DNA from: Bacteroidota bacterium
GTDB lineage: Bacteria; Bacteroidota; Bacteroidia; Chitinophagales; Chitinophagaceae
DNA: 64,000 nucleotides
Direction: 5' to 3'
Assembly: GCA_018267955.1 (NCBI GenBank)
Contig: JAFDXL010000004.1
Location: 128,064-192,063, forward strand
Shown: piece by piece, positions 7,743 to 39,731 of the stretch
Layout: each line of letters starts with the position of its first letter
Numbering within the stretch: the first letter of the stretch is position 1
The notes under the pieces: generated by a model
Database searches by the model: none
The model's input: only the letters and a program-made list of their open reading frames with translations
Told to the model about the DNA's origin: nothing
Program-made: the position numbers and the translations under genes

Positions 7743-8570
7743 ATGCGCAGTATTATTTACAAGCTCTCCGTAGCAAGCCTGTTAATGGTGGCTGCATGTT
7801 CAACACCGCAGAAAACCGTCTATTTCAAAGACACTATGCCACAGAACCCTTCTGTGATCGTAGAAGATATGGAAAGGCGCAAGGAAACAACTTTATTGCC
7901 GGACGACATCCTGGCTATCAAAGTATCTACCATCAGCAGCATACTGGATAAAGAAGGCATGAACCCGGCCCCCATCTTCAACCTGGGAGGCACTGCCTAT
8001 TCTATTACCCCATCTTCGGGCCTGGGAGCTACCAATACCGCTCAAAACCTTGGTTATTTGATAGACCAAAATGGATTTATTGACTACCCTGTTATAGGCA
8101 AGATCAAAGTATCGGGACTTACATTAAGGCAATTAAAAGACCTGCTGGCAGATAAGCTGAGGGCCTATGTGAAAGACCCGGTAGTAGAAGCTAATATTAT
8201 CAACTTCAGGGTAACGGTGGTTGGCGAAGTAGCGCACCCGGGATTTGTGGTGGCGCCGAACCAAAAACTGAGCGTAATAGATGCCATTGCCGCGGCAGGA
8301 GATATACCTATTACCGGAAGAAAGGACAATGTGCTGATAGTGAGAGAAACAGAAGGGAAACGTGAGTATGCAAGGCTGAACCTGAACAGCCGTACGGTTT
8401 TTAGCAGCCCCTACTTTTACCTGAAACAAAATGACTATGTATATGTAGAACCCGCCAGGATACGCAAGCAGGAGACCAACGACTTTATGCGTGTGTACCT
8501 GCCAATAATCAGCACATTGCTGTCAACCGTACTGGCAGTGTATGGCATTATTGCAATATCTAAACAATAA
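7743..8570 (+). CDS. Polysaccharide export lipoprotein, Wza-like
   Basis: 275 residues. The signal peptide ends in the lipobox VAAC, with the lipidated cysteine at 19. A polysaccharide export (PF02563-type) domain follows at about 50-145 (LLPDDILAIKVSTISS, then YLIDQNGFIDYPVIGKI), then one SLBB-type domain at about 150-220 (VTVVGEVAHPGFVVAP). The C-terminus is a hydrophobic helix (LPIISTLLSTVLAVYGII, about residues 250-270) in place of the amphipathic helix of E. coli Wza. With one SLBB repeat it is shorter than Wza (about 379 residues). It should form the outer-membrane exit for the polymer and pair with the Wzc-like kinase that starts 20 bases downstream. Confidence 0.9.
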   Translation: MRSIIYKLSVASLLMVAACSTPQKTVYFKDTMPQNPSVIVEDMERRKETTLLPDDILAIKVSTISSILDKEGMNPAPIFNLGGTAYSITPSSGLGATNTAQNLGYLIDQNGFIDYPVIGKIKVSGLTLRQLKDLLADKLRAYVKDPVVEANIINFRVTVVGEVAHPGFVVAPNQKLSVIDAIAAAGDIPITGRKDNVLIVRETEGKREYARLNLNSRTVFSSPYFYLKQNDYVYVEPARIRKQETNDFMRVYLPIISTLLSTVLAVYGIIAISKQ

Positions 8571-8590
8571 GCATAGCCCGGAACAAGATC

Positions 8591-11008
8591 ATGGAACCCC
8601 AATACCAACAACAACAGTTTTCTGAGAAATTGATGAAGCAGCTCAACTCTTCATTCGATTTCAAACGCCTGCTGGGTACGCTGGTGAGCAACTGGTATTG
8701 GTTTTTATTGTCTGTATCGGTAACTGTAACAGGCGGCTTTTTGTACCTGCGATACAGCACACCTGTTTACGACATTCAAAGCTCGATACTGATAGATGAA
8801 AACCAGGATAATGTAGCCAAGAACGTACTGAGCAAGCTGGATCCTGAAAATGATAAATCGCAGGTAAACCTGTTTAACGAAAAAGTGATACTGCAATCGC
8901 AGGACATGCTGGCCAAGGTTGTTGACTCCCTTGACCTGAACGTGAGATACTGGGCAATGGGCCGTGTGAAAGAAACCGAGATATATGAAGAATGCCCGAT
9001 AAAAATAACTTTTGACACCGTAGGGTACCAGGGCAGTACGATGCAAATGACCGTGAAACAGGTTGCAGAAGGCCAGTTTCAACTGACCATGCCCGACAAA
9101 ACTGTAGATAAAGTGCTGAGCGATACATGGATACGCCGCCCCTTTGGCAGGTTTATGATCACTTATGTAAACAACCCTAAAGTAAACCGCGGCTACCTGA
9201 AGACCACAGAGTTTCGCGTGCAGATAGAAAACAAAGATGTTGCCGTAGCGAGGGTATCCAGCTTATTTACCATTCACCTGAACGACGGACGTACCAGCTT
9301 ACTGGATCTTACCTACAACGATAACATCCCCCAAAGAGGTGTCGACTTTATGGATGTATTGATCTACGTGTATCAAAAAAGCGAACTGGAAACCATCAAC
9401 CTGAAGGCACAAAAAACAAGAGAGTTCCTGAAGAAGAAAGAAGCCTCTATGAACGAGGACCTGAAAGCGATGGATTCTGTGCAGGTAGACATCAAACAGC
9501 AAAATGACATTATAGACCCAACGGCACAAGCTACAGAATATGCCAGCGCTAAAACAGCCAGCGAAACGGCGATGAACCAATTGCTGGCACAAAAACAAGC
9601 CATCAACAGCCTGAAAGCAAACGTGCTGACGGCTAAACATAACCAGGTGATTGCCGGTGTATCGGTAGCTGACCCTAACCTTACGCAACTGGTCGCAGAA
9701 TTCAACCAACTGATACAGAAAAGAGAACAGGGAGCAAGCCTGAGCGGCCCTGAAAACCCAATGATAAAAGCGCTTGACACCGAAATATCGGCGAAGAGAA
9801 GGCGCATTGCCGATGCCTGCGATAATATACTGGCGCAACTGGACCTTAATTTTGCCAATGCCGCGAAAACCGCATCAGAATACGAAAACCGCATACGCAA
9901 TACCCCTAACGTTGAACGCAATCTGCGCGAGGCAAACCGCGGCTATGACGTTGTGAAAAACACCTTCCTGATCCTGTATCAGAAAGACGTTGAAAACGAA
10001 ATATCGGTATATGCCGCTACCAACAAATCGAAAGTAGTAGTGGAGCCCCACTCTACAGGGAAGCCAATTAAACCGGTACCCAATACTATATATGCTATAT
10101 CGTTTCTGCTGGGCCTGCTGATACCCGGCAGTATCATCATCATCAGGGAACTGCTGAACAACAAAGTAATTAATGATCACGATATAGAAACACTCACCAG
10201 CATCCCTATTGTTGGTACCATAAGCCGCGTAGATGGCACTAATAACCGCGAAAATACGATTGTGGTTGGCCCGCATATACGCACAGGTGTTGCAGAGCAG
10301 TTCAGGCTGATACGCGCCAACCTGGAATTTATGGCTGCGGCCAATAATAACAGGACATTTATGATCACCTCCAGCTCAAGCGGTGAGGGTAAATCATTTA
10401 TATCCATAAACCTGGGCATTACCATGACCCTTGCTAAAAAGCGAGTGATCATCATGGAGTTTGACCTGCGCAAACCAAAGATATCTCAATACCTTGGCCT
10501 GCCTAATGACGGCGGCATCAGCGGATACCTTGCCGGAATGAGCGGGTTGGAGTCTGTTTTAAAAGCATCAGGAATACACGAAAACCTGTATATAGCCAAT
10601 TGCGGGCCCATACCACCTAACCCCGGTGAATTGCTGGTATTGCCTAAAACAAGGCAACTGATAAACGAACTGCAGGAAATGTTTGATGTAGTGATCATTG
10701 ATACTGCACCTATAGGGATGGTCTCTGACGCGCTGGTACTTTCTCAATACGCAGGTATCAACCTATTTGTAGTACGCCAGTCTTACACTGTAAAAGACCA
10801 GGTACGCATGTTCGATGTACTGCATAAGGATGGAAAGATCCAAAACCCGGCGATAATCTTTAACGGGGTGGAATTCCTGAAAAAATATGGTTACGGCTAT
10901 GGCGGCAGCTACGGTTACTCCTATGGCTATGGTTACGGGTATGGCTATGACAACGATAATCAAAAGAAAAAGGTAAGCATATCCAGCATTTTTGCTAATA
11001 AGCATTAA
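8591..11008 (+). CDS. Wzc-like polysaccharide co-polymerase / tyrosine autokinase
   Basis: 805 residues: a Wzz-type chain-length domain between two membrane helices (about 33-53 and 498-518), with a long coiled-coil periplasmic part (about 265-470), then a cytoplasmic BY-kinase. Kinase motifs: Walker A SSSSGEGKS at 594-602 (lysine 601), Walker A' VIIMEFDLR at 619-627, Walker B VVIIDTAP with aspartate 704. The tail has ten tyrosines alternating with glycine between about 764 and 786, the cluster that such kinases autophosphorylate to control polymer length and export. The protein fuses the co-polymerase and kinase parts, as in Gram-negative Wzc. It should work with the Wza-like lipoprotein just upstream. 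No cognate phosphatase gene is nearby. Confidence 0.95.
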   Translation: MEPQYQQQQFSEKLMKQLNSSFDFKRLLGTLVSNWYWFLLSVSVTVTGGFLYLRYSTPVYDIQSSILIDENQDNVAKNVLSKLDPENDKSQVNLFNEKVILQSQDMLAKVVDSLDLNVRYWAMGRVKETEIYEECPIKITFDTVGYQGSTMQMTVKQVAEGQFQLTMPDKTVDKVLSDTWIRRPFGRFMITYVNNPKVNRGYLKTTEFRVQIENKDVAVARVSSLFTIHLNDGRTSLLDLTYNDNIPQRGVDFMDVLIYVYQKSELETINLKAQKTREFLKKKEASMNEDLKAMDSVQVDIKQQNDIIDPTAQATEYASAKTASETAMNQLLAQKQAINSLKANVLTAKHNQVIAGVSVADPNLTQLVAEFNQLIQKREQGASLSGPENPMIKALDTEISAKRRRIADACDNILAQLDLNFANAAKTASEYENRIRNTPNVERNLREANRGYDVVKNTFLILYQKDVENEISVYAATNKSKVVVEPHSTGKPIKPVPNTIYAISFLLGLLIPGSIIIIRELLNNKVINDHDIETLTSIPIVGTISRVDGTNNRENTIVVGPHIRTGVAEQFRLIRANLEFMAAANNNRTFMITSSSSGEGKSFISINLGITMTLAKKRVIIMEFDLRKPKISQYLGLPNDGGISGYLAGMSGLESVLKASGIHENLYIANCGPIPPNPGELLVLPKTRQLINELQEMFDVVIIDTAPIGMVSDALVLSQYAGINLFVVRQSYTVKDQVRMFDVLHKDGKIQNPAIIFNGVEFLKKYGYGYGGSYGYSYGYGYGYGYDNDNQKKKVSISSIFANKH

Positions 11009-11114
11009 CCGTCAGCTCCCCGGCAGAAATGCCATTCACATATCAATAACATCGCAAGAGACAAATCTATAATACTAAATAGATAGTTTTACAGCGGAAT
11101 TTTAGAATAAGAAA

Positions 11115-12884
11115 ATGGCAGTAAAAGGGCTCAGTGCATTAACAAGCTCCCGGCGTTTGTACCGGTTGTTTAACGCCTCGCAAAAAAAACAGTTCATATG
11201 GCTGATCTTGCTGACGTTTATAGGCTCTATAAGCGACCTGGTAGGACTTGCTTTTGTATTGCCATTAATAAGCCTGGTTCTTTCGCCGGAATCTTATCAC
11301 ACACTCGTTACCAAAGTGCCCTCCCTTGCAAGCCTTACCAAGAATGAACTGCTGCTGTATAGCGCCCTGCTATTCTTTGTAGTGATCATACTCAAAAACC
11401 TGCTTGGACTGTATATCAATAAACTACAGGTAAATTTTGTAAAGCATTTTTATGTTTCATCCTCGATGAACGTGCTGGATAAAATTTATAAAAAGCCGTT
11501 ACTGGATATACAAAAAGACACATCGAATGAACTTGTAAGTAAATTAACCTATTACCAGGCGGTGTTGTGCAGCAATGCGGCCATCTCTACTATTATCCTC
11601 ATCAATGAAACTATCATCTTCTCCCTTACCGCAATAACGGTCTGCTTTATTGACTGGAAGTTATTTCTGCTGCTGATAATAGTGATGCTACCAATCATGG
11701 GTGGTTTTTACGCACGTGTTAAAAGCCGCATTAAAACTGCGGGACTTGAAAAAACATCTAATGCGACCAAATTATACGCCAATGCACAGGAGATGATTTT
11801 TGGCTATACAGATATAAAAATTGCCGGCACGGAACAAAACTTCAAAAAGCGGTTTGAGCAATATGCCGAAAACTACAGCGTATACCAGGCGAGGCTGGAT
11901 TTTATGCAGTTTATACCAACACGGATACTGGAGGTTGCTATATTTATCAGCATTATACTGATACTGCTTTATGGCGTGTTCATTATAAAAAATCCGGAAC
12001 AAATTGTTGCCACTATATCTGTATTCTCCATCATTGCTTACCGCAGCATTCCATCGGTGAACCGATTTGTGATGGCGATGAGTAACCTAAACTCTACAGA
12101 ATTTGTATTCAACGATCCTGAATTTGAATTGGAGGAACAACCCAAAAATAAAGAACAGGTAGCGCCTCTCACATTCAACGATACTATCCGCTTTGAGCAT
12201 GTATCGTACCACTACCCCAACACACATAACCTTGTGATAAAAGATTGCAACTTGGAGATAAGGAAAGGTGAGAAAATAGGAATTATTGGCAAATCAGGTT
12301 CCGGTAAATCGACTTTGATTGGTAATATACTGGGCTTCCTGTACCCCACGGAAGGCCAGATACTGGTAGATGGCAGCAAACTGAACCAGGATAATATCCC
12401 CCAATGGTGGAAGGTACTGGGCTATGTACGCCAGGAAGTATTCATCATGAACAAAACATTTGCAGAAAACATTGCTATAGGCGAGAGCAGGGAGCAAATT
12501 GATATAAAAAGAATGGAGCGTGCAATCAGACTTTCAAGCCTGGGCGACCTTGTTGCTTCCTGGCCGGAGGGCATGTTTACTATGCTCAACGAAAGAGGGA
12601 ATAACCTATCGGGCGGCCAAAAGCAAAGGATAGCTATAGCCCGCGCTATATATAAAGGTGCAGAGATATTGATATTTGATGAAGCCACATCGGCATTAGA
12701 TTCCAAGACAGAAGAAGAGATCACTAATGCAATACGTGAACTGGGCAATGAGAATCTTACGATTGTCATTATTGCGCATCGCTACACCTCACTGAAGTAT
12801 TGTGATAAGATATACGAATTGCAGAATGGCCATATTACCAACAGCATATCCTATGATAAATTAATGGCAGACTATGCCAAGTAG
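11115..12884 (+). CDS. ABC transporter, fused permease-ATPase; candidate lipid-linked glycan flippase
   Basis: 589 residues, an exporter half-transporter: six membrane helices in the first 320 residues, then an ATPase. Walker A GKSGSGKST at 392-400, signature LSGGQ at 498-502, Walker B ILIFDEATSALD with D522 and E523, and the H-loop IIAHR. It probably acts as a homodimer. Its place inside a glycosyltransferase operon, and the lack of an MOP-type Wzx, suggest a PglK- or MsbA-like role in flipping an undecaprenyl-linked oligosaccharide. Sequence alone does not separate this from lipid or peptide export. A 106-bp gap lies before it, without a clear promoter, so it may be read from the wza promoter. 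Confidence 0.85.
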   Translation: MAVKGLSALTSSRRLYRLFNASQKKQFIWLILLTFIGSISDLVGLAFVLPLISLVLSPESYHTLVTKVPSLASLTKNELLLYSALLFFVVIILKNLLGLYINKLQVNFVKHFYVSSSMNVLDKIYKKPLLDIQKDTSNELVSKLTYYQAVLCSNAAISTIILINETIIFSLTAITVCFIDWKLFLLLIIVMLPIMGGFYARVKSRIKTAGLEKTSNATKLYANAQEMIFGYTDIKIAGTEQNFKKRFEQYAENYSVYQARLDFMQFIPTRILEVAIFISIILILLYGVFIIKNPEQIVATISVFSIIAYRSIPSVNRFVMAMSNLNSTEFVFNDPEFELEEQPKNKEQVAPLTFNDTIRFEHVSYHYPNTHNLVIKDCNLEIRKGEKIGIIGKSGSGKSTLIGNILGFLYPTEGQILVDGSKLNQDNIPQWWKVLGYVRQEVFIMNKTFAENIAIGESREQIDIKRMERAIRLSSLGDLVASWPEGMFTMLNERGNNLSGGQKQRIAIARAIYKGAEILIFDEATSALDSKTEEEITNAIRELGNENLTIVIIAHRYTSLKYCDKIYELQNGHITNSISYDKLMADYAK

Positions 12885-12890
12885 TATAAT

Positions 12891-14099
12891 ATGAACATTT
12901 TGTTAGCAACAGAAGTAATACACCCCGGAGGAGCAGAGACATTTGTTCTGCGGCTTTCGCGTGCATTACAACATGCCGGGCACAATGTTCAGATCTTTAT
13001 ATTCTACAAATCCGGATTTAACGAAGGACTATATCAAACATTTGCCCCTGATGTACCACTGGAGTTTGCCGCAATACCCGCAGAGGGATTGGTTTCTAAA
13101 ATAGATTCACTATTCTTTAAACTCAAGATAGACCTCAGCCTGCGCAGCATCTTTATCAGGAAATCGCTACGAAAAAAAATAAAAGAAAAAGAGATACAGG
13201 TAGTGCATAGCCATTTGCTAAAGTCTGACACCATTTGCCTGGCGGCAGCAAATGATCAAATACCTGTAGTAACTACTATACATGGAGATTACCTGCAGTT
13301 CTACACAAAGCTCCATGCTGGCATTGCCATTCCACTACTTAACTATAAAACCAAAGCCACCAATAATCTAAAGAGCCTGGCACATATTGTTTGCATATCA
13401 GATAAGCAAATCAAGTTTTTCAAAGGAAAGTTTGGAGCTATTACAAAAGGTAAACTGAGTAAGATATACAATGGGTATAATGGAATACCCTCCACAACTC
13501 CATCGCCGCTAAGGAAATCTATAAATATACCTGATGAACATTTTGTGTTTGGAATGGTATCACGGGGCATCCCTGAAAAAGGCTGGCAAACGGCAATAGA
13601 AGCATTTATCAAAATGCAGCAACCACACACACACCTGGTGTTAGTGGGACAAAGCGATTACATCGACGGTTTAAAAGTTAAATACACAGCACATCAAAAC
13701 ATTCATTTCACCGGACACTCTGATAAACCATTGGATTGGATACAAATAATGAATACAGGCTTATTGCCTACGACCTATATGTCCGAAAGTCTCCCTACAG
13801 TAGTTATAGAATATCTATGCTGTGGGATACCGGTAATTGCATCTGACGCAGGTGAAATAGCGAATATGATTCAACTAAACGGCAAACAGGCTGGCATCAT
13901 TGTACCAATTAAAAACAGCAGCGTTTCTGTTGATGAATTGAGCAGTGCCATGAAATTACTAGCCACAAACACTTCTGAATATAATACCTATAAAGCGAAT
14001 GCCAACTATTGCTATACGCAATTTGACATGAATAAGTGTATCGATGCCTATTGTGCAGTATACAGTATTGCAATTGACAACCTAAAACCAAAACCATAA
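12891..14099 (+). CDS. Glycosyltransferase, GT4 type
   Basis: 402 residues of GT-B fold. The N-terminal domain opens with a glycine-rich donor loop (HPGGAETF at 11-18). The C-terminal domain carries the EX7E motif as ESLPTVVIE, followed by the Gly-Ile-Pro-Val-Ile turn. Family members transfer a sugar from a nucleotide donor with retention of configuration, at the inner face of the membrane. Neither donor nor acceptor can be named. The start lies six bases after the ABC transporter stop, and the next gene begins three bases after its end. Confidence 0.85.
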   Translation: MNILLATEVIHPGGAETFVLRLSRALQHAGHNVQIFIFYKSGFNEGLYQTFAPDVPLEFAAIPAEGLVSKIDSLFFKLKIDLSLRSIFIRKSLRKKIKEKEIQVVHSHLLKSDTICLAAANDQIPVVTTIHGDYLQFYTKLHAGIAIPLLNYKTKATNNLKSLAHIVCISDKQIKFFKGKFGAITKGKLSKIYNGYNGIPSTTPSPLRKSINIPDEHFVFGMVSRGIPEKGWQTAIEAFIKMQQPHTHLVLVGQSDYIDGLKVKYTAHQNIHFTGHSDKPLDWIQIMNTGLLPTTYMSESLPTVVIEYLCCGIPVIASDAGEIANMIQLNGKQAGIIVPIKNSSVSVDELSSAMKLLATNTSEYNTYKANANYCYTQFDMNKCIDAYCAVYSIAIDNLKPKP

Positions 14100-14102
14100 G
14101 CC

Positions 14103-14993
14103 ATGAGATTTGCAATAAGAGACGACGATACTAACTTCTATACTACACCGCAAGAACTGGAAAATTGTTATGGTGATATATGGGAAGAATTTGCTCCAAC
14201 ACTCAGCCTGATATCTAAAGTGAAGGGCAATTGGCTGTATTGGGTGCACCAGATATACAAAGACAAACATAAAACCGACTGGCAGGCGTGGAAAGACGAT
14301 AACGCATCTCATCCAATTGAAGACAATAAGGAGCTGGTTAACTTTTTGAAAGAGAAAGTAAAGGAAGGTAAATTAGACATTGCCTACCATGCCAAATTTC
14401 ACCGCAATGAAGACCCTACCCCACCAACCGAAAGAAGCAATAATTATGTTCGCGGGGCTGAGTACTATACTAACAGGAATGTAACCAACGAGATAAAGCA
14501 GGAGGTTGCTTTTTTAAGTCATTTATTCAATTACCAAATAAGCGTTTTTACTCCACCGCAGAATATGCTGTCTATGAAAGGATATCATGCTGTAATAGAC
14601 GCGGGGTTGAACATTTGTGGCGGAGGCATTAGCTTTTTCAAAAAAGCGCGCGACATGAAAGGCATTTCAAATATCGCGAAGCAACTAACATTTAAAGTTT
14701 TACACAAGGATGCAGACTATCCTTTTGTATTACACTTTAGCGATCATAACGAGATTGCGTACCATTATCCTTTGCAACCTACCACCCGCCTTGATTCGCT
14801 TATCTATGACTTTGACATGGTAAGGCGTTACGATGGTGATTTTGTACTATCCACACACTATGCAGAATTTGAATATCCCATGGTGTATGATGAAAAAATA
14901 AAAATGAAACATATACTCAGGGATTTCCTTGATTATATTTCTAAATACCAGAACGTAAACAAAATGTCTTTATCGCAAATGTTGAAGAATTGA
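14103..14993 (+). CDS. Polysaccharide deacetylase-like protein (NodB-like / DUF2334-like)
   Basis: 296 residues, no signal peptide. Seen: RDDDT at 6-10 (candidate catalytic and metal aspartates), HAKFH with histidines 96 and 100 (an Hx3H metal pair), TPPQN at 150-154 (in place of the usual RPPYG), and LSTHYAEF near the end. This order matches the carbohydrate esterase 4 layout, so a metal-dependent N-deacetylase acting on an amino sugar of the polymer or its lipid-linked precursor is likely. Lack of a signal peptide places it in the cytoplasm, which is unusual for a deacetylase of finished polymer and points to a lipid-linked or nucleotide-linked substrate. Its stop overlaps the TTG start of the next gene. 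Confidence 0.7.
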   Translation: MRFAIRDDDTNFYTTPQELENCYGDIWEEFAPTLSLISKVKGNWLYWVHQIYKDKHKTDWQAWKDDNASHPIEDNKELVNFLKEKVKEGKLDIAYHAKFHRNEDPTPPTERSNNYVRGAEYYTNRNVTNEIKQEVAFLSHLFNYQISVFTPPQNMLSMKGYHAVIDAGLNICGGGISFFKKARDMKGISNIAKQLTFKVLHKDADYPFVLHFSDHNEIAYHYPLQPTTRLDSLIYDFDMVRRYDGDFVLSTHYAEFEYPMVYDEKIKMKHILRDFLDYISKYQNVNKMSLSQMLKN

Positions 14994-17433: not shown

Positions 17434-17464
17434 ACGAAGCCAAACAAATACAAACGAAACATAA

Positions 17465-19878: not shown

Positions 19879-19886
19879 AGCTGACT

Positions 19887-21005
19887 TTGAACATATTGAT
19901 AATAGATAATTCTACAGCCTTTACAGGAGCATTCAAATGCGCTTTGAATGAGGCAGAACTATTGTCTGATAAACATCGCTTTGTATTTGTATTAAATAAG
20001 ACAAGCACACTCGTACCCATGTTGCAAGAAAGGGGCATTACGGTGTATACGCTCCCTATGAAAGAAATTAACAGATCAATTGCAACACTGATACAATACC
20101 CCTTTGCACTTATTTCAAATACCATCAGGCTTAGAAACATTATCAGAAACGAGGGTATAGATATTGTACAGGTAAATGATTTTTACAACCTGCTTGGTGC
20201 CTGCAGCAGAATTTTTCAATCGAATATCAAACTACTTACCTATGTACGTTTTGTACCTTCATCTATACCCGCAGCTTTAAGAAACTTTTGGATAGCGATA
20301 GCTCAACGGTACTCCTATAAAGTGATTGCGGTATCTGATACCGTATTAAAACAATTACCAACAAGAGAGAGCACGATCCGTATATATGATCCTATAAACT
20401 TTAGCGAGCGCATCAACGCACCGACCATTAGCGGCGGAAACGAGATAAGAATATTATACCTGGCCAATTATATACACGGGAAGGGACAGGATTATGCGCT
20501 GGATGCATTCATCCACGCGTATGCTCAGAATAAGAACTTAAGATTGTTATTTGCGGGTGGTGATATGGGCTTAGAGAAAAACAAACAGTTCCGGCAAATG
20601 CTTGAAGAAAGAGTACATCTTGAAGGATTAGCAGGCGTTGTAAGTTTTCAAGGCTTTACTGCAGAGATTGAAAAGGTCATCAAGGATGCAGATATCGTTT
20701 TAAACTTTTCTGATTCGGAATCCTTTTCAATGACCTGCCTGGAAGCTTCTTATTATGGTACACCCGTAATAGCAACACGCTGCGGAGGCCCTGAAGAAAT
20801 CATAGTGCATGATAAAACTGGATTGCTTGTTCCCCGAAAGAATATAGAAGCTATGACGGAGGCTATTTTAAAGCTTGCAAATAACACTGAACTGAGAAAA
20901 AGCTACGGATCTGCCGCCAGGCATTATGTGCAGGAAAAATTCAGTGTGCAAACGTTCATCCGGAATTTCGAAAACATCTTAAAAGCCGTGGACAATGCCC
21001 AATAA
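19887..21005 (+). CDS. Glycosyltransferase, GT4 type
   Basis: 372 residues. The start is TTG at 19887, giving MNILIIDNS, the usual first strand of the fold; the nearest in-frame ATG is about 40 codons in and would remove that strand, and a stop lies in frame at 19869-19871. The EX7E motif is ESFSMTCLE, followed by GTPVIATRCGGPEEI. The gene begins eight bases after the previous stop and overlaps the next gene by eleven bases. Donor and acceptor unknown. Confidence 0.85.
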   Translation: MNILIIDNSTAFTGAFKCALNEAELLSDKHRFVFVLNKTSTLVPMLQERGITVYTLPMKEINRSIATLIQYPFALISNTIRLRNIIRNEGIDIVQVNDFYNLLGACSRIFQSNIKLLTYVRFVPSSIPAALRNFWIAIAQRYSYKVIAVSDTVLKQLPTRESTIRIYDPINFSERINAPTISGGNEIRILYLANYIHGKGQDYALDAFIHAYAQNKNLRLLFAGGDMGLEKNKQFRQMLEERVHLEGLAGVVSFQGFTAEIEKVIKDADIVLNFSDSESFSMTCLEASYYGTPVIATRCGGPEEIIVHDKTGLLVPRKNIEAMTEAILKLANNTELRKSYGSAARHYVQEKFSVQTFIRNFENILKAVDNAQ

Positions 21006-22077
21006 AAAAGTATTGTTCATCGTACCGTACCCTGTGCGCGTAGCGCCATCGCAACGGTTTCGTGTCGAGCTATATGAACCATACATGCAGGAAGCCGGGA
21101 TTGAGTATAAAATTGCACCATTCATGGATGCAAAAACATGGCGCATTTTATATACAAAAGGCTCTGTGCTGCAAAAATCTGCAGGCATATTAGGTGGATT
21201 CTTTAAGCGGATTAAGACTGCTGTATTTGATGTCCCGAAGTATAATTACATTTTTATACATCGGGAAGCTTCTCCTGTGGGGCCACCCATCTTCGAATGG
21301 ATCATAGCTAAGATTTGGCGTAAGAAAATCATCTACGATTATGATGATGCCATCTGGTTACCGAATGACAGTACTACTGTAGCCAATAAATTCGCCGGCA
21401 TTTTCAAGGCTACATGGAAAGTAAAATACATCTGCAAATGGTCATACAAAGTTGTTGGCGGCAATGATTACCTGTGCAATTATGCAAGGCAATACAACAA
21501 TGGTGTAGTACGCATACCCACCTGTGTAGATATGCAGCGGGGACACAATGCAAAAAAAGATCACGATGAGCATAAAGTAGTAGTGGGATGGACGGGTAGC
21601 CATACTACTATGTTCTACCTGGATATAATCAAAGATGTCCTTAAAGAGCTTCAGCAGGAGGTGGATTTTACCTTCCTGGTTATCAGTAACAAAAAGCCTG
21701 AACTGGATCTGAAAGATTGGCTGTTCATCAAATGGACTGAAGCAACAGAAGTGGAAGACCTTTTAAAAATGGACATTGGTGTAATGCCAATGCTGGAAAA
21801 CAAATGGAGCGAAGGCAAATGTGGTTTTAAGCTGATCCAATATTTATCACTTGGGATTCCCGGTGTAGCAAGCCCCGCCGGCGTCAATAAGATCATTATT
21901 GAACATGGTGTCAATGGCTATCTCTGCAGCAATACGGAGGATTGGAAATGCTATTTAAAAAAGCTGATACAGGATACCCAACTAAGAAAACAAATGGGCA
22001 AGGAAGGCTACAATAAAATGCTTGCAGAATATAGTATTCAATCTCAGAAGGAGCAGTTTCTTAACTTGTTCTCCTAA
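20995..22077 (+). CDS. Glycosyltransferase, GT4-like
   Basis: 360 residues. The N-terminal part includes SQRFRVELYEPYM and IYDYDDAIW. In the C-terminal domain the usual EX7E is replaced by SEGKCGFKLIQYLSLGIP, where glutamine stands in for the second glutamate. As I recall, this form is common in a subgroup of GT4-like proteins in polysaccharide loci. The gene overlaps its upstream neighbour by eleven bases, and its TAA abuts the stop of the convergent membrane protein gene (TAATTA). It ends the main glycosyltransferase run. Confidence 0.8.
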   Translation: MPNKKVLFIVPYPVRVAPSQRFRVELYEPYMQEAGIEYKIAPFMDAKTWRILYTKGSVLQKSAGILGGFFKRIKTAVFDVPKYNYIFIHREASPVGPPIFEWIIAKIWRKKIIYDYDDAIWLPNDSTTVANKFAGIFKATWKVKYICKWSYKVVGGNDYLCNYARQYNNGVVRIPTCVDMQRGHNAKKDHDEHKVVVGWTGSHTTMFYLDIIKDVLKELQQEVDFTFLVISNKKPELDLKDWLFIKWTEATEVEDLLKMDIGVMPMLENKWSEGKCGFKLIQYLSLGIPGVASPAGVNKIIIEHGVNGYLCSNTEDWKCYLKKLIQDTQLRKQMGKEGYNKMLAEYSIQSQKEQFLNLFS

Positions 22078-23424
22078 TTATAACTTGAGCGATAAGATAT
22101 TCTTTTGAACCGGAAAGTGCCGATAATAAATAAGCATTAACGCAAGCGCATAGAAAGGAAGACACGGAATACGATAGCGAGATAGCGTACCGAAGTTACC
22201 GGAAGATACACCGATTGCAAATCCGAAAATGATAGCGAAAATCAGGCAGAACTGTATGGTAGGGTCGCTTGTGATGGTGCGCCAGGTACGGCGTGGCCCA
22301 ATGGTTATCAATATCTTGATGGTAACCCATAGAAACATGGTAGCTTCCAGAGCGCTCAACAATTGCATCACTTTTTTAGTTTCCCATAAATAGGGCCTGA
22401 ACAGACTTACATTTACAGCAGCCGGAAATTTCTTGAGCATACCACCGATAGAAGGATCCATTTCTCCCAGGCTATAGGCAGAACCTTCATCACCCGAGCG
22501 TTCGGCAATAAATGAACTCGTTCTATAAGACGTGGTAGCCACGTTTTCCAGCGAATATTTGTCAAGAGACGAAGCAAACTTTTGAGAGAAAACCAGGAAG
22601 CCAATAAAGGAACCGGCGATCACTAAGACCTTCAGCATAAAACGGCCAAAAGCATTGCGAATACGGTGTGAATAGGTGAACAATATCCACAAAACTAGTG
22701 CAGGCACGAAAGCCAGCAAGATATAAACCTTGATAGAAGCTACCAGGTAAAAAGCCAATATTGTCATGATGATGGTACCTATCCTGAAATCGCGATTAAT
22801 AAGCAACCTGAAAGCACCATAGGTAAGCCAGCCCAGGCCGAACATACAGATGGTATCTTTAAAGATGCCCGAGCCCCACATGATAGTACTGGGAATATAC
22901 AGTACGCTGATAGCAACCTGCTTGGTGTAGTACGGATACTTTGTTGCGAACGTGCGAAACAATGCCCAAATACCTGTAAATGCCAGCGCACCCAATAACA
23001 CTGCAGTAGGCAGGTAAGTAGTAAAAGTAAACAACCCAAGAAATGCTACGATGCAGGCTACTACATATTCTGTAGAAGACTGGTACCACTCCATTTTGGA
23101 GATATATTCTGAGTAGCGTCCATCGTACCATTCGGGGATGTGGAATATCAGGTTAAACCATTTTCCAAACGACTCGCCCATCGAACTATTAATGATGTCT
23201 GCATGGTGGAAATAAAGCATTGTATCACCACCACCATAATAATACTGGTAAATGAGCCCAATAAATATGGCACCTAGTATCTTTAATGTAAGGCCCGGAA
23301 TAAAATATGGGCGCCATCTATGGCCCGGGGGGTATTGGCTATCGCGTATCTTAAAAGCAATAAGGTAAATGATAACGATATAGAAAGGGAGTAGTAAGAA
23401 GTCGAGGAATGTTATAACTTGCAT
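22078..23424 (-). CDS. Polytopic membrane protein, candidate polysaccharide polymerase (Wzy-like)
   Basis: 448 residues with about ten to eleven hydrophobic helices. After the second helix lies YYYGGGDTMLYFHHAD, a short aspartate-containing motif at the membrane edge of the kind seen in GT-C and EpsG/Wzy-like proteins. A larger loop of about 80 residues precedes the last helices, another feature of O-antigen polymerases. Wzy proteins are poorly conserved, so the call rests on topology, location and the lack of another candidate in the locus. It is the only gene between 7.7 and 26.8 kb read leftward, and it converges on the glycosyltransferase run with no base between stop codons. Confidence 0.55.
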   Translation of the reverse strand: MQVITFLDFLLLPFYIVIIYLIAFKIRDSQYPPGHRWRPYFIPGLTLKILGAIFIGLIYQYYYGGGDTMLYFHHADIINSSMGESFGKWFNLIFHIPEWYDGRYSEYISKMEWYQSSTEYVVACIVAFLGLFTFTTYLPTAVLLGALAFTGIWALFRTFATKYPYYTKQVAISVLYIPSTIMWGSGIFKDTICMFGLGWLTYGAFRLLINRDFRIGTIIMTILAFYLVASIKVYILLAFVPALVLWILFTYSHRIRNAFGRFMLKVLVIAGSFIGFLVFSQKFASSLDKYSLENVATTSYRTSSFIAERSGDEGSAYSLGEMDPSIGGMLKKFPAAVNVSLFRPYLWETKKVMQLLSALEATMFLWVTIKILITIGPRRTWRTITSDPTIQFCLIFAIIFGFAIGVSSGNFGTLSRYRIPCLPFYALALMLIYYRHFPVQKNILSLKL

Positions 23425-23479: not shown

Positions 23480-25390
23480 ATGTGCGGCATCACCGGATAT
23501 TACGCTTTTAAAACGAACGCAGCCAGCAACCTTACAAAAATAACACAATCAACAGAAAAACTAGTCTTGCGTGGGCCGGATCACGGAGATGTTTTTTCAG
23601 ACAGCAAAGTTGCCCTTGGGCACCGCAGGTTATCTATTATAGATACTTCTACAGGTGCATGCCAACCGATGACCGATGTAACCGGAAACTACATATTGAT
23701 CTTTAATGGAGAAATTTTCAATTATAAACAGCTATCTGAGCAATACCTCAACAAAACCTGGGAACGCATCAACGGACCTAAAACCAGCTCTGATACCGAA
23801 GTATTACTGTACCTGCTGATAGAATACGGTGTCGATTCCATTGAATGGCTGGAGGGTTTCTTTGCTTTCTCATTTTATAACAAGAGTACAGGGCAGATGA
23901 TATTGGCGAGGGACAGGTTCGGCAAAAAACCGCTGCTCTACTATGCCACAGAAGACTGCCTGGCATTTTCTTCTGAAATGAAAGCCTTGCTTGAGTGGAA
24001 TATCCCCAAAGAAATCAACTACAATACGCTTCATCAATATTTTCAGCTTAATTATATACCTCAGCCCCAAAGCATACTAAAAGGTGTATTGAAGCTGATG
24101 CCGGCACATTATATGATATGTGGCCCAGAGGGTATTGAAACGTATAAAGCCTATTATGAAATAAAGATCCATAAAGAGGGATATGATAAATACACTTATG
24201 AGGAAGCGCAAAAGCAACTAATTGAAAAAATGGACTGGGCCGTGCAAGAGCGCCTTATTTCTGATGTACCACTAGGCGCTTTCCTTAGCGGGGGTATAGA
24301 TTCTTCCGTAATTGTAGCACTGGCGAGCAGGCATACGAAACAGTTGAATACATTCTCCATCGGTTATAAAGACAACCCCTTCTTTGACGAAACCAAATAT
24401 GCACAGGCTGTAGCTAAGAAATATAATACTTCGCATACCGTATTCTCGTTATCTACAAACGATTTCCTGGAGCATGTATATGATGTGCTGGACTACCTGG
24501 ATGAGCCTTTTGCAGACTCTTCTGCACTGGCACTGTATATACTTAGCCACCATACGCGCAAACATGTAACAGTAGCTTTGAGCGGCGATGGTGGTGATGA
24601 AGTATTTTCAGGATATAACAAGCATGCTGCGGAGCGCAAGGTTCGCCAGCGTTCGTTGACAAACAGTATAGTAAGTTCGCTATTGCCAGTGTGGGAAATG
24701 ATGCCTCGCAGCCGTAACAGCAAAATCACAGATCTCTTCCGCCAATTGCATCGCTTTGCGGAAGGCAGTAAACTATCCATCAGGGAAAGGTATTGGAGAT
24801 GGGCCTCTATTAATACAGAGCAACAAGTTGACAACTTACTCAGCGATAAATCAATTTCTAAAATTGACAGGCAGGCGCTGAACCACGAAAAGCACGTGCT
24901 GCTGAAAGATCTGAATACAGACGATTTCAATGAGGTATTACTTACCGATATGAAGCTGGTATTGCCCGGCGACATGCTGGTAAAGGTGGATATGATGAGT
25001 ATGGCAAATAGCATAGAAGTGCGCAGCCCTTTCCTGGATCATAAAGTAGTTGATTTCGCATTTTCCCTGCCGGAGGCTTATAAGATAGATGGCAGCATGA
25101 AAAAACGCATAGTACAGGATGCATTCCGCAGCATGCTGCCGGAAGAAATATATAACCGACCCAAACATGGCTTTAATGTGCCGCTGCAAGATTGGTTTAA
25201 AAATGAGCTCAGCAGCCTGATATTTGACGATCTGTTAAAAAGGGAGTTCCTGGAAGAACAAGGCATTTTTAAGCCTGAAATAGGCACGATACTAAAGAAC
25301 AAATTACATTCGTCCAATCCCGGAGAAAGCGTAGCTACCATTTGGGCATTGATTGTGTTCCAATATTGGTATAAGAAGTACTTTATTTAG
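23480..25390 (+). CDS. asnB: Asparagine synthetase (glutamine-hydrolysing), AsnB-like
   Basis: 636 residues. The N-terminal glutaminase domain starts MCGITGYY, with the catalytic cysteine 2 directly after the initiator methionine, and includes the RGPDHGD and FNGEIFNY blocks. The synthetase domain has the ATP pyrophosphatase loop SGGIDSS at 270-276, and SGDGGDEVFSGY. It transfers glutamine-derived ammonia to an acyl-AMP. In polysaccharide loci such enzymes may amidate uronic acids or other carboxyl sugars and not free aspartate; the context favours this, but the sequence does not prove it. It diverges from the polymerase candidate across 55 bp. Confidence 0.9.
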   Translation: MCGITGYYAFKTNAASNLTKITQSTEKLVLRGPDHGDVFSDSKVALGHRRLSIIDTSTGACQPMTDVTGNYILIFNGEIFNYKQLSEQYLNKTWERINGPKTSSDTEVLLYLLIEYGVDSIEWLEGFFAFSFYNKSTGQMILARDRFGKKPLLYYATEDCLAFSSEMKALLEWNIPKEINYNTLHQYFQLNYIPQPQSILKGVLKLMPAHYMICGPEGIETYKAYYEIKIHKEGYDKYTYEEAQKQLIEKMDWAVQERLISDVPLGAFLSGGIDSSVIVALASRHTKQLNTFSIGYKDNPFFDETKYAQAVAKKYNTSHTVFSLSTNDFLEHVYDVLDYLDEPFADSSALALYILSHHTRKHVTVALSGDGGDEVFSGYNKHAAERKVRQRSLTNSIVSSLLPVWEMMPRSRNSKITDLFRQLHRFAEGSKLSIRERYWRWASINTEQQVDNLLSDKSISKIDRQALNHEKHVLLKDLNTDDFNEVLLTDMKLVLPGDMLVKVDMMSMANSIEVRSPFLDHKVVDFAFSLPEAYKIDGSMKKRIVQDAFRSMLPEEIYNRPKHGFNVPLQDWFKNELSSLIFDDLLKREFLEEQGIFKPEIGTILKNKLHSSNPGESVATIWALIVFQYWYKKYFI

Positions 25391-25473
25391 CTGTCCAGGT
25401 TCCATACATGTTATTTAGCAGTTAATGATACTGCCAAAGGGGCTATCTCCTTTACTTTGTGGACATATAGGCA

Positions 25474-25481: not shown

Positions 25482-25548
25482 AAGCGAATAAATCGTTACT
25501 ATACCACTGCAGTCATCATGCCCCAGGGCTGCACCAGAAGAAACAAAG

Positions 25549-26787
25549 ATGCCAAGGGTTTTAAGAATACTCAACAGACTGATCATAGGCGGCCCTGCCA
25601 TTAACGCTACTTACCTCACCCGGTACATGGCTCCTGATTTTGAAACCATGCTTGTTATTGGCGGAAAGGACGATCATGAGCAGGATGCAGACCATCTAAG
25701 CATGGACTTGGGCATTACCCCTGTAGAAGTGAGGGAAATGAAACGCGACATCAGCCCCATTGATGACGGCATTGCCTATCGAAAGATAAAAAGGCTGATA
25801 GAAAAATTTCGACCGGATATAGTTCACACCCACGCAGCCAAATCGGGGCTTGTTGGTCGACTGGCTGCAGATGCCTGTAAGGTGCCGGTAATCGTGCATA
25901 CTTTTCATGGCCATGTATTCCATAGTTATTTCAGCAAGTGGAAGAGTAACGCTTTTATACAGATAGAACGATACCTTGCGAACCGCTCCACAGGCATTAT
26001 AGCCATTAGCGAGAAACAAAAGCAGGAACTGACCCAGGTATATAAGATATGTGAAGAAGATAAGATGAAGATCATCCCACTGGGCTTGGATCTGGATAAA
26101 TTCCGGCTACACCAGGAAATAAAAAGAGCTGAATTCAGAAGCAAATATTTTCTTCAGGATAATGACATTGCCATCGGTATTATTGGCCGTATAGTACCGG
26201 TTAAGAATCACAGTATGTTTGTAGCGGCGGCTAAGAAGGTGATGGAACAGACTGATGCCAACGTAAAATTTATTATTGTTGGCGATGGTGACATGCGCCA
26301 GCAAATGGAAGCAGAATTTAAAGAAGCTGGCATTGATTATGCTTATTACCCCGAGCAGAAACGGGAGGCAACTGCAATTTGCACGTCCTGGCTTACGGAC
26401 ATGGATGTTGTTTTAGCAGGGCTTGATATTGTTGCTCTAACATCTCACAACGAAGGCACACCTGTATCCCTGATAGAAGCTCAGGCTGCAGGACGCCCGG
26501 TAGTATCTACCAATGTGGGCGGTGTAGGAGACGTGGTGATTGATAATCAGTGTGGCTACATCACGGAACCTGATAATGCAACTATTTTTGCAGAAGCATT
26601 GTTACAACTTATAAGCAATCCCCAACAAAGAACTCTATTTGGAACACGAGGACAGAATTTTGTGCAGGGAAAATTCTCTTATCAAAGACTGGTGCATGAC
26701 ATAAGCGATTATTACTGCTCGCTTATGGATAAAAAAGGAGTGCCTTACCGACTTGCATCAGGTAAGGCATCTATGTTAGTTAAATAG
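25549..26787 (+). CDS. Glycosyltransferase, GT4 type
   Basis: 412 residues of GT-B fold. The N-terminal loop is IIGGPAINATYLTRY. HTHAAKSGLVGRLAA and HTFHGHVFHSYFSKWK follow in the acceptor domain. The EX7E motif is EGTPVSLIE, followed by GRPVVSTNVGGVGDVV. This set of motifs is typical of transferases near WbpP-type epimerases, and the next gene on the other strand is such an epimerase. It has its own candidate promoter and converges on the epimerase gene with one base between stops. Confidence 0.85.
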   Translation: MPRVLRILNRLIIGGPAINATYLTRYMAPDFETMLVIGGKDDHEQDADHLSMDLGITPVEVREMKRDISPIDDGIAYRKIKRLIEKFRPDIVHTHAAKSGLVGRLAADACKVPVIVHTFHGHVFHSYFSKWKSNAFIQIERYLANRSTGIIAISEKQKQELTQVYKICEEDKMKIIPLGLDLDKFRLHQEIKRAEFRSKYFLQDNDIAIGIIGRIVPVKNHSMFVAAAKKVMEQTDANVKFIIVGDGDMRQQMEAEFKEAGIDYAYYPEQKREATAICTSWLTDMDVVLAGLDIVALTSHNEGTPVSLIEAQAAGRPVVSTNVGGVGDVVIDNQCGYITEPDNATIFAEALLQLISNPQQRTLFGTRGQNFVQGKFSYQRLVHDISDYYCSLMDKKGVPYRLASGKASMLVK

Positions 26788-26788
26788 C

Positions 26789-27772
26789 TTATTGATAAAC
26801 CTCTTTGAAAAAGGCTACTGTTTGCTGTAACCCATTCAGGAAACGCTTCGTAGGCTGATAGCCTAATAGCTTGCTTGCCTTGGAAATATCTGCCAAAGAA
26901 TTGCGGATATCACCGGCACGCTCTTCACGATAAGTAGGCTGATGGTCTTTACCCAGCATTTCACGTATTGATTCGTACAGAAAATTAACAGAGAAATTTT
27001 CCCCTACCGCTACATTGTATGCCTGTCCGAAAGCATCCGTGTTGTCTGTAAGCATGCCGCGTATATTTGCCTGTACAGCGTTATCTACATAAGTAAAATC
27101 CCGGGTTTGTTCGCCATCGCCATTTATATACACGGGCGTTTGACTTAGTATGCCACTTACGAATAGAGGTATTACAGCAGCATAAGGACCATTAGGGTCT
27201 TGCCTAGGGCCGAATACATTAAAGTAACGAAGCCCAACTACTTTCATTCCGTACAGTTTTGCAAATACATCTGCATACAGTTCATTCGTCTTCTTGGTAA
27301 CTGCATACGGAGACAACGGATTACCTACCCTATCTTCTGTCTTAGGCAGGTTAGGTTCATCGCCATAAACGGAAGAAGAGGAAGCATATACAAAACTCTT
27401 TACCCCGGCATCTTTTGCCGCAGTTATCATATTCAGGAAGCCGCTTACATTCACCTCGTTACTGGTAACCGGGTCTTTAACCGAACGGGGCACGGAGCCC
27501 AAGGCCGCCTGGTGCGATACATAATCGACCCCTTCGCAGGCTTTTTTACAGGTTTCGAAATCACGAATATCTCCTTCTATAAATTCGAAATTGGGATAGC
27601 CGGTGAAGAGATCGATGTTCTCTCTTAAACCGGTGAGAAAGTTATCGAGCACGCGAACCTTACCAGCCCCATTTTTGAGCAGGTACTCGGTAATGTGAGA
27701 GCCTATAAATCCTGCACCGCCTGTTACCAGGAATGTATTTTGGGAAATATCTTTTGTATGAAAACCAGACAT
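26789..27772 (-). CDS. UDP-sugar 4-epimerase, WbpP/TviC-like SDR
   Basis: 327 residues, extended short-chain dehydrogenase fold. The NAD-binding GxxGxxG is at 18-24 (GGAGFIG), the catalytic YxxxK at Tyr156-Lys160, with a serine run upstream (YASSSSVYG). AALGSVPRSVKDP and NVFGPRQDPNGPYAAVIP are hallmarks of the UDP-N-acetylglucosamine/galactosamine 4-epimerase group (WbpP, TviC) as opposed to GalE. It should supply UDP-GalNAc or a related amino or uronic sugar to the locus. The protein is complete and starts at ATG 27772. Confidence 0.9.
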   Translation of the reverse strand: MSGFHTKDISQNTFLVTGGAGFIGSHITEYLLKNGAGKVRVLDNFLTGLRENIDLFTGYPNFEFIEGDIRDFETCKKACEGVDYVSHQAALGSVPRSVKDPVTSNEVNVSGFLNMITAAKDAGVKSFVYASSSSVYGDEPNLPKTEDRVGNPLSPYAVTKKTNELYADVFAKLYGMKVVGLRYFNVFGPRQDPNGPYAAVIPLFVSGILSQTPVYINGDGEQTRDFTYVDNAVQANIRGMLTDNTDAFGQAYNVAVGENFSVNFLYESIREMLGKDHQPTYREERAGDIRNSLADISKASKLLGYQPTKRFLNGLQQTVAFFKEVYQ

Positions 27773-39709: not shown

Positions 39710-39731
39710 CAGTTGGTAATTTTCAAATCAC

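What the first reader, a model, noticed from the sequence alone, without database searches (positions are those of the whole stretch)
7743..27772. Polysaccharide locus with an ABC-type flippase beside Wza/Wzc and no priming enzyme
A Wza/Wzc pair normally goes with an MOP-type Wzx and a Wzy polymerase. Here the only flippase candidate is a fused ABC exporter of the PglK/MsbA type, there is no priming sugar-1-phosphate transferase, and the only polymerase candidate is on the opposite strand. This mix suggests a hybrid export route, or a lipid-linked oligosaccharide destined for another use such as protein glycosylation.
Basis: inference. Interest (0 to 1): 0.5.

Follow-up and report, generated by a model that had tools for sequence, protein, structure and literature searches.

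The report
Sugar-polymer locus with swapped membrane pump
A conserved set of genes for making a surface sugar polymer uses an unusual ATP-driven membrane pump in one group of bacteria, where relatives carry two other kinds of pump, which suggests that the inner-membrane step of polymer export is an exchangeable part.

Summary
The locus is real: wza, wzc, a fused ABC exporter, then a nearly gapless + strand run of glycosyltransferase genes (7743-22077), followed by a membrane protein on the other strand, asnB, a GT4 and an epimerase. No MOP-type Wzx or priming enzyme lies in it; those lie elsewhere in the genome. (1) The 'polymerase candidate' (22078-23424) folds like ArnT/ALG12/STT3, a GT-C_A glycosyltransferase; no Wzy was recognised in the locus. 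(2) Relatives keep wza/wzc and/or the GT4f/GT-C end but carry Wzm/Wzt (6 genomes) or a MOP match (7-8, most of them weak) instead of the ABC protein. In two Wzm/Wzt genomes both chromosomal flanks match the window's. More distant ABC relatives lie near Wza/Wzc-type genes in 10 of 18 neighbourhoods examined in the phylum. Best reading: a PglK/Wzk-like ABC translocase took over the inner-membrane step of a Wza/Wzc export pathway, much as Wzk serves O-antigen in Helicobacter pylori, with WecA the likely primer. Protein N-glycosylation is not supported (no STT3). A new variant of a known kind; the biochemistry is untested.

The parts
7743..8570 (+). wza: outer-membrane polysaccharide export (OPX) protein, 275 aa
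   Evidence: PF02563 3.8e-15, SLBB
8591..11008 (+). wzc: polysaccharide co-polymerase with tyrosine-autokinase domain, 805 aa
   Evidence: PF02706; TIGR01007 128.8 bits, over its cut-off of 108
11115..12884 (+). PglK/Wzk-like fused ABC translocase, 589 aa; TM6 motif YRSIPSVNR at residue 309
   Evidence: PF00664+PF00005; best NCBIfam PglK 291 bits, MsbA 282 bits, both under cut-off
12891..14099 (+). GT4a, GT4-family glycosyltransferase
   Evidence: PF00534/PF13439
14103..14993 (+). DUF2334 protein, perhaps a carbohydrate deacetylase (recalled label)
   Evidence: PF10096 2.7e-6
14990..16162 (+). membrane acyltransferase (Acyl_transf_3)
   Evidence: PF01757 2.2e-27
16159..17433 (+). GT4b
   Evidence: PF00534
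17465..18682 (+). GT4c
   Evidence: PF13692/PF00534
18679..19878 (+). GT4d; best NCBIfam match PglJ, 130.8 bits, under cut-off (500)
19887..21005 (+). GT4e
   Evidence: PF00534 3.1e-33
20995..22077 (+). GT4f; part of the conserved end module
   Evidence: PF13692; beside the GT-C gene in many relatives
22078..23424 (-).
   Evidence: model pLDDT 85.9; ArnT Z 17.8, ALG12 Z 17.5; alignment A1
23480..25390 (+). asnB-type glutamine amidotransferase
   Evidence: PF00733 4.2e-93; TIGR01536 445.5 bits, over cut-off
25549..26787 (+). GT4g
   Evidence: PF00534 7.1e-32
26789..27772 (-). UDP-sugar C4-epimerase (TviC-like)
   Evidence: PF01370 1.2e-57; TviC model 347 bits, under cut-off 760

Best explanation
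This is a conserved surface-polysaccharide locus with a Wza/Wzc export conduit. (1) A glycan is started on undecaprenyl phosphate by a primer encoded elsewhere, most likely the WecA-like enzyme on contig C10 (inferred). (2) The GT4 enzymes build it in the cytoplasm; AsnB probably amidates a uronic acid, and the acyltransferase and DUF2334 protein decorate it (inferred from families). (3) The PglK/Wzk-like ABC dimer moves the undecaprenyl-PP-linked glycan across the inner membrane, in place of Wzm/Wzt or Wzx (role supported by gene context; activity inferred). It probably carries chains finished in the cytoplasm, as H. pylori Wzk does. (4) The GT-C_A enzyme adds a sugar in the periplasm from an undecaprenyl-phosphate-sugar donor (fold predicted; reaction inferred). 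(5) Wzc and Wza pass the product to the cell surface (inferred from families). That the ABC protein is this locus's translocase I put at about 0.85; the full mechanism with cytoplasmic completion and Wza/Wzc export at the figure below.
For: Near-gapless + strand run 7743-22077: 9 of 10 gaps are 31 bp or less, the wzc-ABC gap 106 bp. Conserved wza-wzc-ABC order. Swap: the ABC orthologue (E <= 1e-90) is in 7 of 147 family genomes, the own one included. Among loci joined by wza/wzc and/or the GT4f/GT-C end, Wzm/Wzt is in G062, G026, G111, G020, G021 and G118, and a MOP match in G027, G004, G103, G091, G040, G011, G104 and the more distant G045 (Pfam-checked only for Wzm and Wzt of G062 and G021, Wzt of G026 and the MOP protein of G103). 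G026, G062, G111 and G020 keep the pdxH/chrA flank; G026 and G062 also the rsgA flank. ABC-dependent systems of the Wzm/Wzt kind move chains finished in the cytoplasm (PMC9603273, passage), so such a replacement with no recognised Wzy in the locus favours the same substrate state. More distant ABC relatives: a Wzc- and/or Wza-type gene in 10 of 18 chosen 20 kb stretches, MOP in 0 of 18. WecA-like enzyme at 55-67% identity in the 6 other ABC genomes and 52-57% in G062, G026, G111, G020. G117's only PF02397 gene lies about 2.5 kb from a different wzc on contig C34, leaving WecA as its likely primer. TM6 motif YRxxPSxNR in 16 of 16 clade members and in PglK, in 0 of 7 own paralogues. Precedent: Wzk, a PglK homologue, moves O-chains built in the cytoplasm (PMC2841628, passages).
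Against: No biochemistry. Sequence evidence for PglK over MsbA is modest: with the single TMD sequence MsbA scores better (1e-8 against 1e-4); with the clade profile the best MsbA (2e-9) and PglK (1e-8) are near-tied. Tree support is 87-91 SH-aLRT with long branches, PglK and the window clade in neighbouring subgroups. Structure Z-scores are tied across many ABC exporters. The PglK cut-off is not met. 8 of 18 distant neighbourhoods and 6 of 6 distant genome-contig hits show no Wza/Wzc-type gene. Most MOP calls are weak (43-87 bits). A Wzy too diverged to recognise, or one encoded elsewhere (4 Wzy_C proteins), would mean repeat-unit flipping. One Wzy_C/WaaL-family gene (C10) lies about 2.4 kb from the WecA-like gene, as a ligase for an LPS route might. 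G021 and G118 (Wzm/Wzt) have only 30% and 38% WecA-like matches.
Confidence: 0.52

Rival explanations
1. Wzx-like use: the ABC protein flips single repeat units and a periplasmic polymerase (a diverged Wzy, one from another locus, or the GT-C_A protein itself) joins them before Wzc/Wza export.
For: PglK's native substrate is a heptasaccharide (PMC2841628 passage). MOP matches stand in the corresponding loci of 7-8 relatives. Wzc is a co-polymerase. Four Wzy_C proteins exist elsewhere.
Against: No Wzy recognised in the locus. Two of the Wzy_C genes sit in other loci with their own Wzx and primer. The relatives that share the chromosomal flank carry Wzm/Wzt.
Confidence: 0.25
2. Export of an O-antigen to lipid A-core: the ABC protein works as in H. 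pylori, the glycan is ligated by a WaaL-type protein encoded elsewhere, and Wza/Wzc serve another polymer.
For: Direct H. pylori precedent with WecA, Wzk and WaaL. Two Wzy_C/WaaL-family proteins lie outside the recognised Wzx loci (C3:187616, C10:740682), and the C10 one is about 2.4 kb from the WecA-like gene.
Against: wza-wzc are contiguous with the ABC gene and conserved with it. The C3 Wzx locus has a wzc of its own.
Confidence: 0.15
3. Protein glycosylation: a lipid-linked oligosaccharide is flipped by the ABC protein and put on proteins by the GT-C protein or another transferase.
For: The GT-C model also matches oligosaccharyltransferases (STT3 complexes up to Z 15.2, PglB Z 11.5). The ABC is PglK-like and GT4d weakly PglJ-like.
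Against: No STT3 match in the genome, though no bacterial PglB was among the positive controls. The best fold matches are ArnT and ALG12 (Z 17.8, 17.5). The 448-residue model is helical throughout, without a large soluble domain. Wza/Wzc and the Wzm/Wzt swap point to polymer.
Confidence: 0.05
4. The ABC protein is an MsbA-type lipid, or peptide/drug, exporter that merely sits in the operon.
For: MsbA model 282 bits, nearly equal to PglK; MsbA wins the single-sequence TMD search.
Against: The genome has a better MsbA candidate (494 bits, itself under the cut-off of 602, against 246 for PglK; C6:84721). Conserved place behind wzc and alternation with Wzm/Wzt and MOP. The TMD tree separates the clade from MsbA chains and the own MsbA candidate.
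Confidence: 0.03

Closest known systems
Helicobacter pylori Wzk O-antigen pathway (Hug et al. 2010, PMC2841628; passages read)
   Same: A PglK-type single-polypeptide ABC translocase in place of Wzx and of Wzm/Wzt; chains built in the cytoplasm; WecA primes (here inferred).
   Different: H. pylori ligates the chain to lipid A-core with WaaL; here the translocase gene is beside wza/wzc, pointing to OPX/PCP export.
Campylobacter jejuni PglK
   Same: Fused TMD-NBD; TMD aligns over residues 12-325; YRxxPSxNR motif; a predicted short helix (58-67) between the first two long helices (its counterpart in PglK is recalled).
   Different: Only 291 of the 1000 bits of the PglK equivalog cut-off; no STT3-type partner in the genome.
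ABC transporter-dependent capsule/O-antigen export (Wzm/Wzt, KpsMT with OPX and PCP)
   Same: Relatives' syntenic loci have Wzm/Wzt beside wza/wzc; OPX and PCP present.
   Different: Wzm/Wzt absent here; an exporter of a different ABC type in the position.
Wzx/Wzy-dependent group 1-type capsule/EPS
   Same: Wza and a kinase-type Wzc.
   Different: No MOP Wzx, no recognised Wzy, no primer in the locus.
HepA of heterocyst polysaccharide formation
   Same: MsbA-like ABC protein linked to a polysaccharide (role recalled); NCBIfam match 244 bits.
   Different: Under cut-off (725); no cyanobacterial locus was examined.

Membership tests
PglK/Wzk lipid-linked glycan translocase | Fused TMD-NBD half-transporter | tested here: met
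   PF00664 + PF00005 in one 589-aa chain
PglK/Wzk lipid-linked glycan translocase | NCBIfam PglK equivalog cut-off (1000 bits) | tested here: not met
   291.3 bits, though the best of all NCBIfam models; so it is called PglK/Wzk-like and not filed as PglK
PglK/Wzk lipid-linked glycan translocase | TMD closer to PglK than to MsbA | tested here: inconclusive
   near-tied or for MsbA; shared TM6 motif and TMD tree lean to PglK at moderate support; structure Z tied
PglK/Wzk lipid-linked glycan translocase | Moves undecaprenyl-PP-linked glycans | not testable with these tools
   Needs an in vitro or complementation assay
Wzx/Wzy-dependent pathway | MOP Wzx in the locus | tested here: not met
   5 PF01943 hits, none on contig C5; PF13440 was not searched genome-wide, but no locus protein scanned matched it
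Wzx/Wzy-dependent pathway | Wzy polymerase in the locus | tested here: inconclusive
   No PF04932 hit on C5; the candidate is GT-C_A by predicted fold; a diverged Wzy is not excluded
Wzx/Wzy-dependent pathway | Priming enzyme in the locus | tested here: not met
   4 PF02397 and 2 PF00953 hits, none on C5
ABC transporter-dependent (Wzm/Wzt) pathway | Wzm and Wzt | tested here: not met
   No such match among the 15 locus proteins; present in relatives
ABC transporter-dependent (Wzm/Wzt) pathway | OPX and PCP proteins | tested here: met
   wza, wzc
Pgl protein N-glycosylation | STT3/PglB oligosaccharyltransferase | tested here: not met
   0 matches in the own genome; the control search rang in 4 of 14 genomes, all archaeal by name, so no bacterial PglB was a positive control
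GT-C_A glycosyltransferase (ORF 22078-23424) | GT-C_A fold | tested here: met
   Predicted model: the top 39 of 50 rows, Z 17.8-8.5, are GT-C enzymes or complexes that hold one, two of them GPI-transamidase chains (GT-C-like by recall); the next row falls to Z 5.7. Foldseek alone had no E under 0.07. The GT-C_A class name is recalled
GT-C_A glycosyltransferase (ORF 22078-23424) | Conserved acidic residue in the first periplasmic loop | tested here: inconclusive
   Asp67 invariant in 28 of 28, just after predicted helix 38-63; sidedness and superposition on ArnT's Asp not checked

The most novel reading that the evidence does not exclude
A further wiring of bacterial polysaccharide secretion: a Wzk/PglK-type ABC translocase hands cytoplasmically finished, undecaprenyl-PP-linked chains directly to a kinase-type Wzc and Wza, recurrent in Bacteroidota and exchangeable with Wzm/Wzt and Wzx, so that the conduit does not care which translocase feeds it.
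Probability: 0.35. Interest if true: 0.65.

Novelty: new variant of a known kind. Interest (0 to 1): 0.45.

Why it matters
The usual schemes pair a kinase-type Wzc and Wza with Wzx/Wzy, and describe export by Wzm/Wzt-type transporters as a separate route. A locus type that keeps its conduit and end genes while changing between three kinds of inner-membrane translocase is a natural experiment on whether Wzc/Wza depend on the translocase, and on whether chains or repeat units are exported. It offers related strain pairs for a direct test, and it warns annotators not to call this GT-C protein Wzy.

Tried and rejected
Polymerase reading of ORF 22078-23424: set aside because of the predicted GT-C_A fold and its presence in loci with Wzm/Wzt. 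WaaL/Wzy folds were not among the rows shown, which does not exclude them. Profile A1 against PDB sequences: 0 hits.

Type IX secretion / A-LPS link (AsnB as WbpS): considered, where a PorV2-like gene lies downstream in G117. One literature search (listing and abstract starts only); amidotransferases of this kind are too general to tell, so not pursued.

Literature for this combination: searches (20 of 45 papers listed; 15 of 19; 10 of 44; 10 of 17; 10 of 17,347, too broad to be of use) showed, by title and abstract start, no paper on a PglK-type translocase beside Wza/Wzc in Bacteroidota. Beyond the listings I saw passages of PMC2841628, PMC9603273, PMC4594306 and PMC9601211. The library holds open-licence papers only. 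PMC9601211 notes short OPX proteins (280 aa or less) with a C-terminal helix mostly in Bacteroidetes; this wza (275 aa) fits that size, its helix was not tested.

Counting errors corrected: one search hid the ABC gene of L199 under a longer overlapping frame; one search repeats the count with all frames. A 25-bit Wzc match in L200 and a 21-bit one in L198 were not counted as Wzc; L198 counts through its OPX protein. In L193 the 758-aa frame has no Pfam match, so it counts through its Wza. In L194 the Wzc piece lies at the far end of the stretch. The 18 neighbourhoods were chosen by me from the matches of 57 genomes, best matches and varied families first, so 10 of 18 is not an unbiased rate.

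Weak points of the MOP calls: a home-made profile of 6 proteins; scores 43-87 bits except G103 (540 bits, Pfam-confirmed). G011 and G045 showed no wza/wzc in the stretches taken. G130, G049, G056, G144 and G140 gave no transporter call and are left out of the tallies. A 1 kb stretch fetched for G079 was not scored, G038, G134 and G051 were not fetched beyond the GT-C gene, and the other genomes with distant GT-C relatives were not examined.

Odds changed on re-checking: I had overlooked that the Wzy_C/WaaL-family gene on C10 lies about 2.4 kb from the WecA-like gene; for that the O-antigen rival went from 0.12 to 0.15 and the best explanation from 0.55 to 0.52.
Full report
What is there. The window is G000:C5:128064-192063 of a 4.18 Mb genome in 10 contigs, 98.15% complete. 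The nearest named relative of the ABC protein is 99% identical, in the MAG 'Bacteroidetes bacterium 43-93'; eight more at 64-77% include Flavipsychrobacter sp. and Chitinophagaceae bacterium LGM1. The locus runs wza, wzc, ABC, GT4a, DUF2334, acyltransferase, GT4b, c, d, e, f on the + strand (7743-22077), with gaps of -11 to 31 bp except 106 bp between wzc and the ABC gene. Then come a membrane protein on the - strand (22078-23424), asnB, GT4g and, on the - strand, a C4-epimerase.

What is missing, and where it is. PF02397 primers: 4, on C9 (two), C6 and C3. MOP flippases (PF01943): 5, on C2 (two), C3 (two) and C9. Wzy_C: 4, on C3 (two), C10 and C9. PF00953: 2, on C10 and C3. None lies on C5. 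Two loci hold a full set by themselves: C9 about 95.8-98.8 kb (primer, Wzy_C, MOP) and C3 about 386-410 kb (primer, Wzy_C, MOP, its own wzc). A third primer (C9:53575, 473 aa, TIGR03025 over cut-off) has no MOP, Wzy_C or wzc match within its 20 kb stretch. A WecA-like protein (149 bits, under its cut-off of 326) sits on C10 beside a wecB-like gene and about 2.4 kb from one of the Wzy_C-family genes. STT3: none.

The opposite-strand protein. It has no Pfam or NCBIfam match. Relatives occur in 81 of 147 family genomes, many of them distant. A model from 28 sequences (pLDDT 85.9, pTM 0.86) gives, in the VIA-align second look, ArnT (Z 17.8, rmsd 4.1, 293 aligned), ALG12 (Z 17.5) and a run of OST, PMT, Emb and PglB structures; the first row outside the GT-C set has Z 5.7. 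Foldseek by itself was weak (best E 0.07, not a GT-C protein). Asp67 in GGGDT is invariant in 28 of 28, just after a predicted long helix, where GT-C_A enzymes keep their catalytic acid (recalled). So it is most likely a polyprenyl-phosphate-sugar-dependent periplasmic glycosyltransferase, not a Wzy.

The ABC protein. NCBIfam ranks PglK first (291 bits) and MsbA second (282), both under cut-off. The genome's own MsbA candidate behaves differently: MsbA 494 (cut-off 602), PglK 246. With the transmembrane part alone, a single-sequence search favours MsbA (1e-8 against 1e-4). A 13-member profile brings PglK level (1e-8, best MsbA 2e-9); the PglK match runs over residues 12-325, the MsbA matches start at 49 or later. 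The motif YRxxPSxNR of TM6 is in 16 of 16 clade members and, as YRLMPSANR, in PglK. It is absent in 7 of 7 own paralogues and 3 of 3 Pelagibacteraceae proteins; of 29 phylum-level relatives 3 have it, 11 more have the F variant and 15 have neither. A 32-row TMD tree puts the clade in one group with PglK and polysaccharide-locus relatives, apart from MsbA, at 87-91 SH-aLRT with no starred fork joining window and PglK. The model has a short helix at 58-67 between the first two long helices. Outward-facing PglK is among the top structures (Z 29.2, rmsd 2.8, 28% identity), tied in Z with many exporters.

The swap. The ABC orthologue (E <= 1e-90) is in 7 of 147 family genomes, 5 of 100 genera, the own genome included, each with the GT-C relative at 62% identity or more (two pieces at 68-71% in G033). 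I then scored stretches around the GT-C, ABC and wzc genes of 25 further family genomes and of G094 with profiles. PglK-like ABC beside wzc: G117, G132, G050, G136, G042 and G033, besides the window. Wzm/Wzt: G062, G026, G111, G020, G021, G118, all with wza/wzc. MOP match: G027, G004, G103, G091, G040, G104 with wza/wzc; G011 and the distant G045 without wza/wzc in the stretches taken; only G103's is strong. No transporter call: G130, G049, G056, G144, G140. In G026, G062, G111 and G020 the order is pdxH-wza-wzc-Wzm-Wzt, as pdxH-wza-wzc-ABC in the window; between wzc and Wzm, G062 has two sugar-epimerase-like genes and G111 a 156-aa gene. In G026 and G062 rsgA also flanks the other end. G020's GT-C gene is on another contig of that assembly. 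In G021, G118 and the MOP loci I saw no pdxH flank, so they are joined by the wza/wzc start and/or the GT4f/GT-C/GT4g end only. The GT-C tree needs one change for the ABC label (6 rows) but with weak support (45/69; 44% of bootstrap trees) and 10 changes over all labels. The same-genus genome G094 lacks both the GT-C and the ABC orthologue at these thresholds and has a wzc-Wzm-Wzt-Wzt run without the pdxH flank in the stretch taken.

Beyond the family. A phylum sample found ABC relatives (E <= 1e-70) in 57 of 395 genomes. I took 18 neighbourhoods of 20 kb that I chose among them. Wzc over 100 bits: L191, L194, L195, L196, L197, L199, L202, L203; Wza/OPX: L193 and L198. That is 10 of 18; MOP matches 0 of 18 with the home-made profile. 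In L188 (another family of the class) the GT4f and GT-C genes lie about 6.6 kb from the ABC gene, again on opposite strands. The six more distant genome-contig hits show no wza/wzc match.

Priming. No PF02397- or WecA-type profile hit falls in any of the 27 stretch sets, while all 17 genomes searched have PF02397 and WecA/MraY-type proteins elsewhere. Against this, 2 of the 18 distant neighbourhoods do have a PF02397-type match (L193, L202). In G117 the only PF02397 gene is about 2.5 kb from a different wzc (C34), so its 55%-identical WecA-like protein is the likely primer. The same enzyme is at 55-67% in the 6 other ABC genomes, 52-57% in four Wzm/Wzt genomes, 47% in G094, 40-42% in the four MOP genomes searched, and only 30% and 38% in G021 and G118.

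Mechanism and comparison. In H. pylori the PglK homologue Wzk moves WecA-primed O-chains built in the cytoplasm, independent of length (PMC2841628, passages). Replacing Wzm/Wzt by such a protein while keeping the OPX/PCP conduit is the simplest account of this locus. What differs from Wzk is the partnership with Wza/Wzc; an LPS route with the C10 Wzy_C/WaaL-family protein as ligase remains a rival. A cyanobacterial survey also reports strains that often lack the complete set for any one pathway (PMC4594306, passages). Shown by computation: gene content, conservation, swap, predicted folds. Inferred: substrate, direction, chain state, primer, the GT-C reaction.

Verdict. The result is a new variant of a known kind, of moderate interest because the relatives make it testable.

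Noticed in passing
L029:11776-12726, L078:7949-9856 and same-sized frames in L030-L036; absent in window and L028: Relatives carry one or two genes directly after the ABC gene that the window and its 99% relative lack (the three tested are GT2), and several (for example L029-L034) carry a second asnB-type gene inside the GT run.
   Followed up: partly
L152:6255-12493 (G094:C2): The same-genus genome has wzc followed by Wzm and two consecutive Wzt-like genes.
   Followed up: no
L101:7368-9802 (G000:C3:187 kb): A Wzy_C protein beside a short protein that looks like a Wzz-type chain-length protein; no PF01943 or PF02397 hit lies in the 16 kb stretch. The Wzz label is by eye.
   Followed up: no
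window 39106-43051: Sugar-nucleotide genes (a cytidylyltransferase/CDP-glucose-dehydratase-like pair and an RfbC-like protein, named by eye), possibly deoxysugar supply for a surface glycan.
   Followed up: no
L198:12781-15240: An 819-aa OPX protein with Poly_export and five SLBB stretches close to a PglK-like ABC gene.
   Followed up: partly
L038, L039, L040: Pelagibacteraceae single-cell contigs hold 28-31% relatives of the ABC protein among epimerase-like and other apparent sugar genes (most labels by eye).
   Followed up: no
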